Assembly (NCBI RefSeq): GCF_001274535.1
Contig: NZ_CP012410.1
Span: forward strand, 1,151,126 to 1,215,125
Reading direction: 5' to 3'
Origin: Leptotrichia sp. oral taxon 212
Lineage (GTDB): Bacteria > Fusobacteriota > Fusobacteriia > Fusobacteriales > Leptotrichiaceae
Length of the DNA: 64,000 bases
This document shows positions 10,787-58,754 of this stretch, piece after piece. The translations under genes and the position numbers were made by a program. Position 1 is the stretch's first letter; the number at the start of each line of letters is the position of its first letter. A model generated the notes under the pieces. The model did no database searches. It was not told the DNA's origin and worked only from the letters and a program-made list of their open reading frames with translations.

Positions 10787-10823
10787 TCTAATATTCTAAC
10801 TTAGAAAGTAGGATTATCAGTGA

Positions 10824-10848
10824 TGTACTGACCCCAAAAAGTTGGACA
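10824..10848 (+). repeat. IS terminal inverted repeat, left (transposase 3' side)
   Basis: This 25-bp end matches the reverse complement of 12242-12266 at 21 positions; the differences are two adjacent pairs. Confidence 0.85.
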
Positions 10849-10855
10849 AATTAAT

Positions 10856-11707
10856 TTAACCAACCAATAAGGATTGACTTCTGTAAGAAGCAGGAGTTAA
10901 TCCTTTTAATTTTTCCTTTATTCTTTTGTTGTTGTAATAATATATGTATTCCTCTATTGCTTCTTTCAGTTCTTCCAGTGTTCTGTACTTTTCTTCCTGT
11001 TCATAAAACATCTCTGATTTTAATAACCCAAAGAAACATTCCATTAATCCGTTATCTAAACTGTTTCCTTTCCTTGACATACTTTGAGTTATATTCTTTT
11101 CTTTTAACCTTTTCTGATATAAATAATGCTGATACTGCCATCCTTGATCGCTATGAAATATCAAATTCTCATAATTCCCATTTTCTTTAAATGCTAAATT
11201 TAACATATGGTTTATCTGCCCCAAGTTAGGACTGCGCGAAATATCATATGAAACTATGTATCTTCCATAAGCATCCAATATTGGAGATAAGTATAACTTT
11301 TCTCCCCTCAGATTAAATTCTGTCACATCTGTAAACCATTTCTGATTTGGAGCTGCTGCTTCAAAATCTCTTCTGATATGATTATCAGCTATCCTTCCTG
11401 TCTGACCTCTGTATGAAGAATATTTCCTCTTTTTACGGATAATGCTCTGTAAATTAAATTTCTTCATAAGCCTCTGTACTTTTTTATGATTAATATTTAA
11501 CCCTTGATTCTTTAATTCCAATGTTACTCTTCGATAACCATATCTTCCTTTATTTGCATAGTAAATTTCTTTGATTTTTTCAATGATATCTTTATTCTTC
11601 TCATCAATATCTTTTTTATCAATATAGTAGTAATATACTGATTTTGATATCCCGGCAATTTTTAACAGCATCTTGAAAGGGTATTTAGCTCTAAGTTCGG
11701 CTATCAC
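10856..11707 (-). CDS. IS3-family transposase OrfB (DDE integrase domain)
   Basis: The 283-residue product has an N-terminal helix-turn-helix segment (about 1-75, the HTH_21 type, YRRVTLELK) and an rve-type integrase domain (about 105-270). The catalytic triad is visible: Asp in FTDVTEF, Asp in FHSDQG and Glu in LMECFFGLLKSE. It opens with GTG at 11707 two bases after the orfA stop. The open frame continues upstream through an A-rich run at the end of orfA, so the active enzyme is probably an OrfAB fusion made by -1 ribosomal frameshifting, as is known for IS3 elements. The frame is intact. Confidence 0.9.
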   Translation of the reverse strand: MIAELRAKYPFKMLLKIAGISKSVYYYYIDKKDIDEKNKDIIEKIKEIYYANKGRYGYRRVTLELKNQGLNINHKKVQRLMKKFNLQSIIRKKRKYSSYRGQTGRIADNHIRRDFEAAAPNQKWFTDVTEFNLRGEKLYLSPILDAYGRYIVSYDISRSPNLGQINHMLNLAFKENGNYENLIFHSDQGWQYQHYLYQKRLKEKNITQSMSRKGNSLDNGLMECFFGLLKSEMFYEQEEKYRTLEELKEAIEEYIYYYNNKRIKEKLKGLTPASYRSQSLLVG

Positions 11708-11709
11708 TC

Positions 11710-12219
11710 TTACTTTTTCTTCTCTTTTAGCTCCCTTTCCTGAACTAGAGCTCTCAATTTTTTTAAGTATTCGTTCTCAGCTTTAAGATACATATTTTCT
11801 TCTTCTAACTGTTTAATCTTATCTTTTTCAGATAGAACTTTCTCATTTTTCTTAGGTTTAGTCATAGATTTAGGTTTCCTTCCTTTTTTCTTCTCTACAA
11901 CATTATACTCATTTTCTTTAAATTTTGAAAGCCAATTATGTAAAATACTAGGAGCTGGCAAACCAATATCAATAGCAACAGAATTAATAGACTCATGATT
12001 AACTAAAATTCTATTAATTATTTGTAATTTAAAATCTTTAGAATAAACTCTATTTTTATCTTTTCTTAAAATATCATATCCATGTTTTTCAATTAAAGCA
12101 ATTAAATATTTAATATTAGATTCCTGAACATCAAAATCATTAGCTAAAGAAGAAATAGTTTCACCATTTTTTCTTCTTTCATATATTTCAATTTTATCTT
12201 CTCTTGTTAATTTGCTCAT
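11710..12219 (-). CDS. IS3-family OrfA (helix-turn-helix DNA-binding subunit)
   Basis: This 169-residue protein carries two helix-turn-helix units (about 1-50 and 55-110) and a C-terminal leucine-zipper-like coiled coil rich in Lys and Glu (about 130-165). It binds the IS ends and is the front half of the OrfAB transposase. The ATG at 12219 is chosen because GGAGG lies about 10 bases upstream, inside the right terminal hairpin. The open frame reaches into the terminal repeat, but no ribosome site supports the longer start. The last codons (GAG AAG AAA AAG TAA) give a slippery A/G run for the -1 shift into orfB. Confidence 0.87.
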   Translation of the reverse strand: MSKLTREDKIEIYERRKNGETISSLANDFDVQESNIKYLIALIEKHGYDILRKDKNRVYSKDFKLQIINRILVNHESINSVAIDIGLPAPSILHNWLSKFKENEYNVVEKKKGRKPKSMTKPKKNEKVLSEKDKIKQLEEENMYLKAENEYLKKLRALVQERELKEKKK

Positions 12220-12241
12220 AAAAACTGCACCTCCAATCTTG

Positions 12242-12266
12242 TGTCCAAGATTTTGGGTGCAGTACA
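12242..12266 (-). repeat. IS terminal inverted repeat, right (orfA side)
   Basis: This is the outer 25 bp of the transposase-proximal end. It is also the distal arm of a hairpin covering 12223-12266, and a second, solo copy of that hairpin lies at 47181-47224. Confidence 0.85.
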
Positions 12267-12341
12267 CTGAATGATAATCCTATTTTTTTTTTTGCAAATA
12301 CAAAAATAATTATAAAAATGGAGTTTTTTTAAAAAAAGGGG

Positions 12342-41107: not shown

Positions 41108-41340
41108 TGAGGAAAAAAAAATTAAAGGCGGTAGTAACTTTTCATACTACCGCTGAAAGTATAAAATTTGAAAAGGCATGCAAGAGGGAAAACGTGAAAG
41201 GACGTTTAATAACAGTTCCAAGGGAAATTTCTGCGGGATGTGGATTTGCGTGGTGCTCTGACTTAAAACTGAAAGAAAAATTAAAAGAAGTATGTGGGAT
41301 GGAAAATATCGACAGTGAAATCCATGAAATATATAGATAA
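41107..41340 (+). CDS. DUF3343 domain protein (putative Se/S carrier)
   Basis: A 77-residue protein matching the small DUF3343 family that is repeatedly found next to YedE and class V desulfurases. It has FHTTAESIKFEKACK near the start and conserved cysteines in SAGCGFAWCSD (two Cys), plus one near the end (VCGMEN). A role in carrying or binding a sulfur or selenium species is inferred from context. The TAATG overlap with yedE indicates coupling. No terminator hairpin with T-run is obvious before the repeat that follows. Confidence 0.85.
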   Translation: MRKKKLKAVVTFHTTAESIKFEKACKRENVKGRLITVPREISAGCGFAWCSDLKLKEKLKEVCGMENIDSEIHEIYR

Positions 41341-41342
41341 AT

Positions 41343-41503
41343 AAAACTATATTTAATCATTTATTAGAATTTTACTTATATAAAACAGTTATTCATTAAG
41401 AAAAAATCAAAAACTCGCCTAAAGGCTCAAACAATGATTTTTTCTAAATTCATTTCCTGTTTTAAATTGTAAAATTTTAAATAATTTTTAAATATAGTTT
41501 TTT
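41343..41503 (-). repeat. MITE-like quasi-palindrome, copy 1 (minus orientation)
   Basis: This 161-bp intergenic stretch is closely similar, when reverse-complemented, to 49399-49563 and 57165-57332. It is bounded by AAAACTATATTT and its complement, and the interior mirrors itself (for example TTAAGAAAAAATCA against TGATTTTTTCTAAAT), so RNA would fold into one long hairpin. It has no open frame of its own. Together with 41505-41611 it fills the 359-bp gap before sppA. Confidence 0.75.
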
Positions 41504-41504
41504 A

Positions 41505-41587
41505 TATAGTGAAGCCGCTTTAAAGTTAAACTGAGAAATTTCATTTATATGGAATAATCAGTTTGACATTAAAGAAGTTTCACTATA
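41505..41587. repeat. Second, unrelated palindromic element
   Basis: The 83-bp stretch starts TATAGTGAA and ends TTCACTATA, with inner arms CTTTAA and AAACTGA also matched (about 23 of the first 29 positions pair). It directly abuts repeat copy 1 and is not homologous to it. It looks like another small transposon derivative. Confidence 0.6.
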
Positions 41588-48522: not shown

Positions 48523-49359
48523 GTGAAAATTGCAATAATAACAGGGATTGTATTATGTGTATTTGGAATAATGGATGTAATATTTGAAAATACTATTTTC
48601 AATCTGTTTAAAAATTTGACTAAGCCCTATTTAGAAAAGGCTTATGAAGAATCAAAAAAATTGTTTATTACTTTATCATTGCTGAAAGGAACAGCTGACG
48701 TCATTGAAGGAAGTACAGTTAATGTAAATATGATACTTGGAATGAATGTGGAAATAGGAGATATTGTAAAACCTATTTATGATATAATAAATACAATATG
48801 GCAAATATCGCTGGCAAGTGTAGTTATTTTAAAGCTGGAAACTATTTATTACGAGATATTCAGGGTAAAAATAGCTTCAATTTTGATTTTTATCTCATTA
48901 ATTACTTATTTTCCGTATACTTTTACTAAGAATAAAATTACGGAAATCCTAAAAAAAATAGCTAAATATGCATTTTCTTTGCTGCTTTTTATTTATATTG
49001 TTCTTCCGGGGGCAATTTTGATAAGTTCAGGAGTTTCTGGCTACTTTGAAAATGAATATAAAAAACCTGCTGTTGCACAGCTTACTACGAGCCTTGATAA
49101 ACTGAACAAAGTTAAAGATGAGCTTTTTGTATTGGAACAGTCAAAAGGATTATTTAATATTCCTGGACAGCTTGAAAGTGCCAAAGAAAGATTCAACGGT
49201 TTTGGAAATGAAATAAACAATGTTTCGAAAAGCCTTACAGACAATACTCCAATAATAATAGGAATAACACTGCTTTCCTATCTTATTATGCCGTTGCTTG
49301 TAATTGTATTTTTATACAAACTTATGAAGGATATATTCTGGGAAAAATTAAAAAAATAG
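48523..49359 (+). CDS. Unrecognised membrane protein, start disturbed by an A8 tract
   Basis: From the GTG at 48523 the product has 278 residues with four to five membrane helices (near 1-20, 115-135, 145-170, 245-270) and a soluble loop with helical coiled-coil character (about 185-240). No family is recognised. A strong AAGGAGG at 48474-48480 precedes an ATG at 48488 whose frame stops after 12 codons. Adding one base to the A8 run at 48502-48509 would join that ATG to this gene (MLQIIKKNKNKIVKIAIITG). As it stands, translation relies on the GTG overlapping the TGA of the mini-frame. Confidence 0.7.
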   Translation: MKIAIITGIVLCVFGIMDVIFENTIFNLFKNLTKPYLEKAYEESKKLFITLSLLKGTADVIEGSTVNVNMILGMNVEIGDIVKPIYDIINTIWQISLASVVILKLETIYYEIFRVKIASILIFISLITYFPYTFTKNKITEILKKIAKYAFSLLLFIYIVLPGAILISSGVSGYFENEYKKPAVAQLTTSLDKLNKVKDELFVLEQSKGLFNIPGQLESAKERFNGFGNEINNVSKSLTDNTPIIIGITLLSYLIMPLLVIVFLYKLMKDIFWEKLKK

Positions 49360-49602
49360 AAATAAAAAAGAGGATATTCAAAAATAAAATATTAATGTGA
49401 AAAACTATATTTAAGAATTATTTAAAATTTTACAATTTAAAACAGGAAATGAATTTAGAAAAAATCATCTGTCTGAGCCTTTAGACAAGTTTTGATTTTT
49501 TCTTAATGAATGACTGTTTTATATGAGTAAAATTCTAATAAATGAATAAATATAGTTTTTTATATATAATATATTTCAATTTGAGAATCCTCTTTTTTAT
49601 TT
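49360..49602. terminator. Bidirectional terminator with a MITE-like repeat in its loop
   Basis: The 23-bp arms AAATAAAAAAGAGGAT... (49360-49382) and ...ATCCTCTTTTTTATTT (49580-49602) pair at 21 of 23 positions. They lie between two convergent genes, beginning right after the stop of the first. The repeat at 49399-49563 is inside the loop. Confidence 0.8.
49399..49563 (+). repeat. MITE-like quasi-palindrome, copy 2
   Basis: About 165 bp, starting GAAAAACTATATTT and ending AAATATAGTTTTT. The two halves mirror each other around GAGCCTTTAGAC. It is homologous to 41343-41503 (reverse) and 57165-57332. Confidence 0.8.
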
Positions 49603-49609
49603 CTACTTT

Positions 49610-50542
49610 TTAATATTGTGATATTCCCAGATTAAATCCATTTCTTGCTACTGGAACGCCTCTTAAATCATAAGCTGTCCAAGTTCCGTCAGCAGTATAA
49701 TTTTTTATTTTTCCTTTCAGTTTTATGGAACCATTATTGTAATATTGTTCAAAGTCTCCGTTTCCATTTACCAGGTCAGCTTTTCTTTCTTTGGCGCCAT
49801 CAGGATACTGTCCCTTAATTTGTTTTAACTTACCATAGTCATAAGTTTCAGTAAGTCTTTTTATATTTCTTCCTTCTGAAGCAGGATAATACCAGATCCA
49901 TTCCTTATCCCTCATGTTATCTACATATACACCTTCAGCTTTAAGATTTCCGTCTGTATAATATGAAAGTGACTTTCCATTTTTTCTTCCGTTTTTATAA
50001 ATGTCTTCCTGTATTTTTATTCCTTGAGAAAATTTCAGTTCAGTTCCTTCTTTAACACCATTATTGTATTCAACTGCTAAAGTTAAACTTCCTTTATCAT
50101 CAAATTCATATCTTGGACCATCTAAAACACCGTTTTTATAATTACTTATGGAATTTGAATATCCGGTAGATAAACTAAAATCAATTTCTTCACCATTTTT
50201 TTGGCCATTTTTGTATTCTGAAACTTTTGATACACCTCCATCACCATTATAATAGTATACTTTTCCGTCAAGTACACCGTTTCTGTAATTTTTTATGGAC
50301 TGTACTCCGTAATTATAATTATACTCAACCAATGGTCCTGTAATAGGAGTGTTATTTTCCAGACTAACAACAATTCCGTTAGCAATAGTAGTGTTTTCAG
50401 ATGTATAGTAATTTCTGCTGTCTAATATTCTATGCTGTTCTGAATAATAATTTCCTGATGATTTTGGTCTTGTATTTGGATTTATGGCAGCTGCAGCACT
50501 TAGTGCGATAAGTGAAAATAATATGACAATAAGTTTTTTCAT
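49610..50542 (-). CDS. Secreted MORN/YwqK-type repeat protein
   Basis: The 310-residue precursor has a signal peptide (about 1-19, ALSAAAA) and then about seven repeats of the MORN variant of the YwqK family (patterns such as YKNGQKNGEEIDF, YKNGVLDGPRYEF, YKNGRKNGKSLSYY). Such repeats form an extended beta surface and are often in exported proteins of fusobacteria; YwqK itself was named as an antitoxin in Bacillus, which does not fit an exported protein. The role is unknown. A strong GAAAGGAGG precedes the ATG. Confidence 0.82.
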   Translation of the reverse strand: MKKLIVILFSLIALSAAAAINPNTRPKSSGNYYSEQHRILDSRNYYTSENTTIANGIVVSLENNTPITGPLVEYNYNYGVQSIKNYRNGVLDGKVYYYNGDGGVSKVSEYKNGQKNGEEIDFSLSTGYSNSISNYKNGVLDGPRYEFDDKGSLTLAVEYNNGVKEGTELKFSQGIKIQEDIYKNGRKNGKSLSYYTDGNLKAEGVYVDNMRDKEWIWYYPASEGRNIKRLTETYDYGKLKQIKGQYPDGAKERKADLVNGNGDFEQYYNNGSIKLKGKIKNYTADGTWTAYDLRGVPVARNGFNLGISQY

Positions 50543-56375: not shown

Positions 56376-57073
56376 TTGATAGAAAAAAATATAAAAGATG
56401 TAAAAGAAATTCTGGAAAGAATGAATCCAAACCAGAAAATAAATTATCATACAATATTGACTAAACTGGTTGATGACTGGAAAAAAGCGAAGTAAGGCCC
56501 AAAATACTTATTCACAGCTGTTGTGCACCATGCAGTACATATACTCTTGAATTTCTTTCAGAATATGCTGATGTTACTGTACTTTTTGCCAATTCCAATA
56601 TTCATCCTAAAGCTGAATATGAGAAAAGAGCACTTGTGCAGAAAGAATTTATTGATAACTTTAATGAAAAAACGGGAAATAAAGTAGGATTTATTGAAGA
56701 TGAATATAATCCTGCAAGTTTTTTTCAAAAAGTGAAGGGACTGGAAGAAGAAAAGGAAGGCGGTGCCAGATGTACTTCGTGTTTTCAGATGAGGCTTGAT
56801 ATTGTTGCAAAGAAAGCTCAGGATTTAGGTTATGATTATTTTGGGAGTGCACTGACGCTTAGTCCTAAGAAAAACAGCCAGCTGATTAATACACTCGGAC
56901 TTGAAATACAGGAAATATTTGATGTGAAATATCTTCCTTCAGATTTTAAAAAGAATAATGGCTATAGCCGTTCGATTGAAATGTGCAAGGAATACGATGT
57001 TTACAGACAGTGCTACTGCGGATGCATTTTTGCGGCAATGGATCAGGGGATAGATTTGAATGAATATAAATAG
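56376..57073 (+). pseudogene. queH: Epoxyqueuosine reductase QueH with a one-base frameshift
   Basis: QueH reduces epoxyqueuosine to queuosine in tRNA, the last step of queuosine synthesis. Frame one (start TTG at 56376 or ATG at 56421) gives NPNQKINYHTILTKLVDDWKKAK then stops at TAA 56493-56495. A second frame continues from about 56492 with RPKILIHSCCAPCSTYTLEF through CTSCFQMRL and the final CYCGC. Together they cover a full-length protein of about 232 residues with all cysteines in place. One base is missing near the A6 run at 56481-56486 or the AAG-TAAGG after it. The rest looks under selection, so a sequence error or slippage is as likely as true loss. Confidence 0.85.
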
Positions 57074-57131
57074 AAATAAAAGAAACTGTCGTACTATAAC
57101 TGAATAAAAAAATTGAATTAATTTACTTTAT

Positions 57132-57380
57132 AAGGGGGCTGTCTCAAAAAGAAAACTTAAAATTAATGTGAAAAACTATATTTTTGAATTATTTAAAATT
57201 TTACAATGTAAAATAGGAAATGAATTTAGAAAAAGTCATTTGTTCGAACCTTTAGGTAATTTTTTGACTTTTCTTTAATGAATGACTGTTTTATATAAGT
57301 AAAATTTTAGTAAATGAATAAATATAGTTTTCATATATTGCATTTATATTTTTGCTATTTTGAGACAGCCCCCTTTATTT
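57132..57380 (+). terminator. Terminator with a MITE-like repeat in its loop
   Basis: The arms AAGGGGGCTGTCTCAAAA (57132-57149) and TTTTGAGACAGCCCCCTT (57358-57375) pair perfectly over 18 bp, followed by a T-rich run. The repeat at 57165-57332 is inside the loop. It follows queH; the whole gap 57074-57488 holds only this composite and the start region of the next gene. Confidence 0.82.
57165..57332 (+). repeat. MITE-like quasi-palindrome, copy 3
   Basis: About 168 bp, similar to 49399-49563 along its length (shared TTAATGTGAAAAACTA start and AATAAATATAGTTTT end) and to 41343-41503 in reverse. Confidence 0.8.
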
Positions 57381-57488
57381 TTTGATTTTCTTAATTTTTA
57401 AAGTATTCTATATTTTTTTAAAATTTTTCAGTTAATTTTCAGGTTTATTTGCTAAAATAGGTTTATCCAAAAAAGAAGGAGAAAATTT

Positions 57489-58699
57489 ATGAAAAAAAAG
57501 CAGGAAAATTATCTGTATTAATTACAGCTGGATTGATGTTATGCATTTTAAATGGATTTTCAATAACAATAGCTACTAAAGAATATATTTGCCCATTAGG
57601 GAATGAGAAGTTTACAGCAGGTATTAATTTACCACAACAATGTCCAGAAAATAAATTTGTAATGTTCAAGGAAAATTTTACAAAAGAGGAGTTGCAAAGA
57701 TATGAAAAGATAATAAGTTCAAAAGAATATAAAACTATTCCTAAAAATTCTCCTAAAGAACACTATTTAGGAAGATTTTATGAAATGGCAGGAGGATTTT
57801 CAGATAAAGAAATAGGGGAAGCATATTATAAAGCCTATATTGAACACATTAATAGAAATGTTCAGAATAATGATACTTTAAAGGAGAGTCTGATAAAAGG
57901 TATAGATTATCTTGAAAAATCTTTATCTTCAGGAAAAAAAGATGGTTTTCCATCGAGTTTAGCTTACTTGTATATCAGTAACAGGGAATACGATAAAGCA
58001 AATGCTCTGATAGAAAAACAGGATAAAAATATTTATTTAGAAAAGATAACTGATTTTTATTATAGCGTTTCCAGTTTGCAGAAGACTGAAAGTGGTTATC
58101 GTTATAAATATTATAATGAAATCGGTATTGATGAGAAAGCAAAGAAAATTTTTAGGGAAAAGGCATTGAATTATTTACAGGCAGTAATTAGAAAAAATAA
58201 TGGACAGTATTCGGGACAGGAGCTTTTAAGGCAAGCAGAATTGTATAGTTCTTTAGGTAATAAAAAAGCTATAGATGAAGTATTTCTTAAAGCACAGCCA
58301 AAATATTGGAAGTTGATTATTTTACATTATCTGGATGAACACGGAGGAATTATTGGCGAAGTTTATGATAAAAATAATTTATCAACAGAAGCTGATTTGA
58401 AAAAAGCTCTAAGTTATGCTGGCAAATTAGAAAAAATGACCTACAAATCATTTAAAGAGAATATTAACATGGAAATGAAAAATATTAAAAGAAATGATTA
58501 TCTTGAAGCTGCATTTTTGAAAGCTGAAGCTGAACGTCGTTTAGGAAAATTTAGAGAAGCATTAAAAACTCTGAGCAAAATAGATGTAGCAGATATAAAA
58601 AATACTGCTTTTAATAGTGATTTGGAAAAACTTAAAGAATTAATTGAAAAAAAGGATAACAGCGTAAGCCAATATATTCCAGGTCGAATTATGTATTAG
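57489..58699 (+). CDS. Secreted TPR-like protein, frame interrupted at an A8 tract
   Basis: The main frame from the TTG at 57533 gives 388 residues. A better start is the ATG at 57489, eight bases after AAGGAG, but that frame stops after ten codons. If the A8 run at 57492-57499 held nine A, the ATG would lead straight into a signal peptide (MKKKAGKLSVLITAGLMLCI) joined to the main frame. The mature protein is helical with pairs that look like TPR or Sel1 repeats (about 110-160 and 300-370) and few cysteines. Function is unknown. It opens the run of small secreted proteins that continues to 61.5 kb. Confidence 0.7.
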
Positions 58700-58718
58700 T
58701 TTAACAAAAAATTATAAA

Positions 58719-58754
58719 ATTAAAACTTAAAGGAGAGATGATTTTTATGAAAAA
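58719..58754 (+). repeat. Duplicated leader, copy 1
   Basis: These 36 bases, including AAAGGAGAG and the start codon of the gene at 58747, are identical to 59136-59171, which covers the start of the next gene. This indicates a recent tandem duplication of the ribosome site region. Confidence 0.75.

What the first reader, a model, noticed from the sequence alone, without database searches (positions are those of the whole stretch)
57132..57380. MITE-like repeat inserted into the loop of a terminator (second case)
An independent 18-bp perfect terminator stem of unrelated sequence (AAGGGGGCTGTCTCAAAA arms) again holds the same repeat family in its loop. Together with the IS3 case, three insertions in terminator loops occur in 64 kb. 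This suggests a transposition system that recognises hairpin DNA or the T-rich tail.
Basis: partly seen in the sequence, partly recalled or inferred. Interest (0 to 1): 0.72.

Follow-up and report, generated by a model that had tools for sequence, protein, structure and literature searches.

The report
IS1182-type MITE mistaken for split terminator
The "terminator arms" around this repeat are the ends of the repeat itself, a small non-self-moving transposon of a known insertion-sequence family (IS1182) that is known in staphylococci to land in hairpins; its many copies in this Leptotrichia-like genome sit at gene ends and look as if they follow the same habit.

Summary
The 18-bp perfect arms at 57132-57149 and 57358-57375 are real, but they are not a separate terminator split by a repeat. 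The inner 13 bp (GGCTGTCTCAAAA) recur at the ends of many other copies in this genome, including 53-111 bp deletion forms. They are identical to the terminal inverted repeat (TIR) of an IS1182-family insertion sequence in related Leptotrichia genomes. A decayed IS1182 fragment bearing nearly the same end lies in this genome too. So 57132-57375 is one complete 244-bp miniature element (MITE), a single end-to-end hairpin. The "composite" reading fails for this copy.

The wider idea, transposition into hairpin DNA, gains support elsewhere. Of 35 full-length copies, 15 lie between convergent gene ends and 1 between divergent starts. Outside their TIRs, roughly a third sit in copy-specific complementary arms, far more than mismatched flank pairs show (0 of 5000 permutations). 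No target duplication was found. IS1272/TnSha1 (IS1182 family) is published to insert into terminator hairpins, delete part of the stem and make no duplication. I infer the same mechanism here. No clean empty site exists in the genomes held, so insertion into a pre-existing hairpin is not shown directly.

The parts
57132..57375 (+). complete MITE copy (244 bp), one long imperfect palindrome
57137..57149 (+). left terminal inverted repeat GGCTGTCTCAAAA, identical to the IS1182-type IS ends
57358..57370 (-). right terminal inverted repeat (reverse complement of GGCTGTCTCAAAA)
57132..57136 (+). outer 5-bp extension of the stem (AAGGG), not significantly beyond chance for this copy
57371..57375 (+). 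outer 5-bp extension of the stem (CCCTT), partner of 57132-57136; followed by a T-rich stretch
57172..57204 (+). subterminal inner arm of the MITE (AAAACTATATTT...)
57299..57331 (+). subterminal inner arm of the MITE, partner of 57172-57204
49351..49382 (+). second copy in window: left outer stem unique to this copy (AAAAAATAGAAATAAAAAAGAGG) running into a decayed TIR; starts at the 3' end of the upstream gene
49395..49565 (+). core of the second copy
49580..49611 (+). right outer stem of the second copy, 91% complementary to 49351-49382
41337..41507 (-). third copy in window, core only, TIRs not recognisable

Best explanation
The feature is a non-autonomous IS1182-type MITE, 244 bp, with TIRs GGCTGTCTCAAAA (shown). 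The family was most likely mobilised in trans by an IS1182-family transposase. An autonomous relative with the same TIRs survives in sister Leptotrichia genomes, and only a fragment was found here (TIR identity shown; mobilisation inferred). Copies entered intergenic DNA at gene 3' ends without target duplication (distribution shown). They probably did so by using terminator hairpins as targets and replacing the upper part of the stem, as published for IS1272/TnSha1. The foot of the old stem would remain as the copy-specific outer arms seen around a subset of copies (inferred). The inserted palindrome can itself serve as a bidirectional terminator (inferred).
For: TIR: GGCTGTCTCAAAA 13/13 at both ends of a 1.83-kb IS in G011 (1857-3688 of L218), at one end of the G010 IS whose 525-aa transposase is intact (PF13751, PF01609, PF05598), and in G013 and G016; 12/13 at a transposase fragment in the window's own genome at 1688598-1688734. 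Element boundary: in 35 full-length copies 28 of 70 ends match at least 10/13; I estimate about 2% per end by chance. Deletion forms of 53-111 bp keep both ends and subterminal sequence; about 80-bp relatives with the same ends occur in other Leptotrichia genomes. Targeting: 15 convergent, 19 co-directional, 1 divergent; convergent and divergent junctions must be equal in number on a circle, binomial two-sided p about 5e-4. Own left/right flanks outside the TIR are more complementary than swapped pairs (8.84 vs 5.04; 0/5000), weaker in a mixed second set (z 2.1, 105/5000). Striking cases: L022 AAAAACTCAGTTTTT, L029 AAAGAACATTTCAAAATAAA, L101 AACAGAAACTATT, L009 TAGAAATAAAAAAGAGG. No target duplication: 11 of 12 good copies have no direct repeat of 4 bp or more. 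Precedent: PMC5678879 and PMC4923244, where TnSha1 partly deletes terminator hairpins.
Against: No clean empty site was found: flanks in relatives are too diverged, and the best case (G013 IS versus G000 2236179) shares only the right flank. Only about a third of copies show strong extra stems, and the 57132 copy does not. The MITE shares only the TIR with the IS, not the subterminal sequence. No intact transposase was found in this genome.
Confidence: 0.78

Rival explanations
1. The core repeat (AAAACTATATTT ends, ~160 bp) is the mobile unit and inserted into the loops of pre-existing GGCTGTCTC-type terminators.
For: Perfect 18-bp arms at 57132/57358; some copies match only over the core.
Against: The same arm sequence flanks many copies and extends seamlessly into conserved subterminal sequence; copies lacking it mostly show decayed versions; no GGCTGTCTC hairpin without element sequence was found in this genome, the short ones hold MITE subterminal sequence; the arms equal the TIR of an IS1182-type IS.
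Confidence: 0.06
2. The element is an IS1182-type MITE with no structural target preference; it accumulates at gene 3' ends only because insertions elsewhere are removed, and the outer complementary arms arose afterwards through selection for better bidirectional terminators.
For: A-rich left and T-rich right flanks give some complementarity by composition (swapped-pair mean 5.0); absence from divergent regions is also expected from purifying selection on promoters.
Against: Own-pair complementarity exceeds swapped pairs of the same composition in all 5000 permutations; several arms are long, specific and not simple A/T tracts (L022, L029, L101); structure targeting is published in the IS family.
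Confidence: 0.22
3. A vertically inherited long hairpin (structural RNA or extended terminator), not a mobile element.
For: Very stable continuous hairpin (z -9.7).
Against: About 40 dispersed copies in one genome next to unrelated genes; absent at the aligned sites in related genera.
Confidence: 0.02

Closest known systems
IS1182 family, in particular IS1272 and TnSha1 of staphylococci
   Same: Related IS in Leptotrichia has the IS1182-type transposase domains and the same TIR as the MITE; no target duplication; copies at gene 3' ends; inverted repeats around the ends of some copies match the published partial deletion of target hairpins (PMC4923244, PMC5678879).
   Different: The element here is a non-autonomous 244-bp MITE in a Leptotrichiaceae genome; the hairpin target is inferred, not shown by paired alleles.
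Bacterial MITEs and terminator-like repeats (reviewed in PMC10969869; e.g. BOX, RUP, SPRITE of pneumococcus)
   Same: Short, AT-rich, palindromic, intergenic, multi-copy, with truncated and internally deleted forms; possible terminator role.
   Different: Different TIR and parent IS family.

Membership tests
MITE (non-autonomous, IS-derived) | short (<600 bp), no coding capacity, terminal inverted repeats, multiple dispersed copies | tested here: met
   244 bp, end-to-end inverted repeat, about 40 copies next to unrelated genes; no ORF of 100 aa or more in it
MITE of IS1182 type | TIR shared with an autonomous IS of the family | tested here: met
   GGCTGTCTCAAAA 13/13 at IS ends in G010, G011, G013, G016 and 12/13 at an own-genome fragment
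MITE of IS1182 type | transposase of the family (DUF772 plus DDE_Tnp_1_6) encoded by the TIR-bearing IS | tested here: met
   PF05598, PF01609 and PF13751 in the 525-aa protein of G010
MITE of IS1182 type | subterminal sequence shared with the autonomous IS | tested here: not met
   IS continues TGATTAAAATTTTGAGTTCAGCTTC, MITE continues AGAAAACTTAAAA; not a required feature of a MITE, but it weakens direct descent from this IS copy
IS1272-like structure-targeted insertion | no target-site duplication | tested here: met
   11 of 12 well-kept copies have no direct repeat of 4 bp or more; no offset significant after 56 tests
IS1272-like structure-targeted insertion | remnants of the target hairpin outside the TIRs | tested here: met
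   excess own-flank complementarity across the set (0/5000), about a third of copies; not met for the 57132 copy itself
IS1272-like structure-targeted insertion | empty allele with intact hairpin | tested here: inconclusive
   no close strain held; flanks in other genera too diverged

The most novel reading that the evidence does not exclude
A MITE family in Leptotrichiaceae was spread by an IS1182-type transposase that cuts terminator hairpins and leaves their feet around each copy, so structure-targeted, stem-replacing transposition is a general property of IS1182-type elements, reaches another phylum and also moves non-autonomous elements that then act as replacement terminators.
Probability: 0.5. 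Interest if true: 0.5.

Novelty: new member of a known kind. Interest (0 to 1): 0.36.

Why it matters
It corrects a composite that was not one, and ties the repeat to a known transposon family. The genome holds about 40 natural insertions, many still bracketed by inverted repeats found nowhere else in the set. That makes it a ready test bed for whether the hairpin-targeting reported for IS1272 in staphylococci is a family-wide mechanism, and for how terminators are recycled by mobile DNA.

Tried and rejected
Empty GGCTGTCTC hairpins in the own genome: none with a loop of 30 or less and full GGCTGTCTCAAAA arms; those with a slightly shorter arm hold MITE subterminal sequence. Orthologous empty sites for the 49401 and 57132 copies in 17 and 16 relatives: element absent, intergenic DNA not alignable. 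HGT-linked downstream block at 57404-58750 (about 92% to G007 and G015): no informative left flank. Congeners by protein scan of GTDB genomes: none closer than other genera. Shared short copy in six Leptotrichia-group genomes: all carry it, no empty allele. IS copies in G011 and G013 versus relatives: the G013 right flank is shared with a hairpin in G000 but the left flank differs. G009/G007 and G005/G010 pairs: not clean. L114 (515766) as a possible autonomous IS: no transposase recognised among its ORFs (read by eye only). Target duplications: none.

Full report
Observation. The window holds 18-bp perfect arms at 57132-57149 and 57358-57375 (AAGGGGGCTGTCTCAAAA) around a repeat whose inner arms begin AAAACTATATTT. 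As RNA, 57126-57385 folds into one hairpin of -75.7 kcal/mol, z -9.7 against dinucleotide shuffles.

It is one thing. A search of the window's own genome (2.44 Mb, one contig) gives about 40 copies of the repeat. The best ones match from inside the arms to inside the arms: 94%, 91%, 91% and 88% identity over query positions 1-8 to 235-239 of 244. Reading all copies with their flanks shows GGCTGTCTCAAAA or a decayed form at the same place. In 35 full-length copies, 28 of 70 ends match at least 10 of 13 bases, 12 copies at both ends; my estimate for chance is about 2% per end. Hairpins in this genome with the same arms but a short interior, for example 2182834-2182893 and 1252231-1252305, contain the MITE's subterminal sequence and are deletion forms. 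Other Leptotrichia genomes carry versions of about 80 bp with the same ends. No GGCTGTCTC hairpin without element sequence was found here.

Whose ends are they? Relatives encode transposases with DUF772. In G011 the transposase relic lies in a 1.83-kb element with GGGGCTGTCTCAAAA at both ends (L218 1857-3688); G010, G013 and G016 carry the same end. The intact 525-aa G010 protein has PF05598, PF01609 and PF13751, the domains of IS1182-type transposases (family assignment from general knowledge). In the window's own genome a transposase fragment (62% over 39 aa, 1688598-1688714) lies 7 bp from AGCTGTCTCAAAA at 1688722-1688734. The MITE shares the TIR with this IS but not the sequence further in.

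How it got there. By simple ORF calls, 15 of 35 full-length copies lie between convergent genes, 19 between co-directional ones and 1 between divergent ones. Convergent and divergent junctions are equally many on a circular chromosome, so 15:1 is unlikely by chance (binomial p about 5e-4), though selection against insertions in promoters would act the same way. I then asked whether the flanks outside the TIRs are complementary to each other. Own left/right pairs score 8.84 on average against 5.04 for swapped pairs, with 0 of 5000 permutations reaching the observed mean (28 copies). The effect fades 20 bases further out (z 5.7 to 2.8). A second set of short copies and copies from other genomes, which includes some doubtful pairs, gives z 2.1, 105 of 5000. 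About a third of copies drive the result, with arms found only once each: AAAAACTCAGTTTTT (L022), AAAGAACATTTCAAAATAAA (L029), AACAGAAACTATT (L101), TTAAATGA (L012), and in this window TAGAAATAAAAAAGAGG at 49351-49611. The finding's own copy is not among them: AAGGG/CCCTT outside the TIR is matched or beaten by 16% of swapped pairs. No target duplication is seen.

Precedent. TnSha1 and IS1272, IS1182-family elements of staphylococci, insert into sequences that form hairpins, several confirmed as terminators, delete part of the hairpin and make no target duplication (PMC4923244; PMC5678879). That is the pattern the flanks here suggest: old stem foot, then TIR, then element.

What is shown and what is inferred. 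Shown: the element's limits, its TIR identity with an IS1182-type IS, copy number, deletion forms, lack of target duplication, gene-end location, excess flank complementarity. Inferred: mobilisation in trans by an IS1182-type transposase, insertion into terminator hairpins, and the terminator role after insertion. The missing proof is an empty allele. Genes flanking the 57132 copy are at most about 79% identical at the nucleotide level in the nearest held genomes on the upstream side, and the intergenic DNA does not align; the genus holds this genome alone in the collection.

Noticed in passing
window 10809-12282: An IS3-family element (HTH_Tnp_1 ORF 11710-12267 and rve ORF 10856-11707, minus strand) lies between TAGGATTATCA and TGATAATCCTA followed by T11, that is, inside what looks like a terminator hairpin loop; this is an insertion case independent of the MITE.
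   Followed up: partly
window 41505-41587: A separate 30-nt imperfect hairpin (83%) directly abuts the third MITE copy; similar sequence (TTTACTTTAAAGTAGTTTCATTATA) is seen next to an IS1182-type hairpin in G005 and G010, possibly another repeat family.
   Followed up: no
L218:1745-1856; L104 (G000 1877684-1877792): A different repeat of about 100 bp (contains ACAGGATGATAAAACTACCATCCTGT) is present in many Leptotrichia genomes at about 95% and lies directly beside IS1182-type or MITE ends in both G011 and G000.
   Followed up: no
window 57404-58750: Gene block about 92% identical to G007 and G015 (another genus) while neighbouring genes are 73-79%: likely recent horizontal transfer; in G007, G009 and G015 it is part of a tandem array of paralogues.
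   Followed up: partly
window 56504-57073: QueH reading frame lacks ATG/GTG/TTG near its conserved N-terminus (open frame starts after a stop at ...LEKSEVRPKILIHSCCAPC); start codon unusual or a frameshift upstream.
   Followed up: no
L225-L230: An 800-bp stretch with a short IS1182-type MITE is 96-100% identical in six Leptotrichia-group genomes of two genera, suggesting recent exchange.
   Followed up: no
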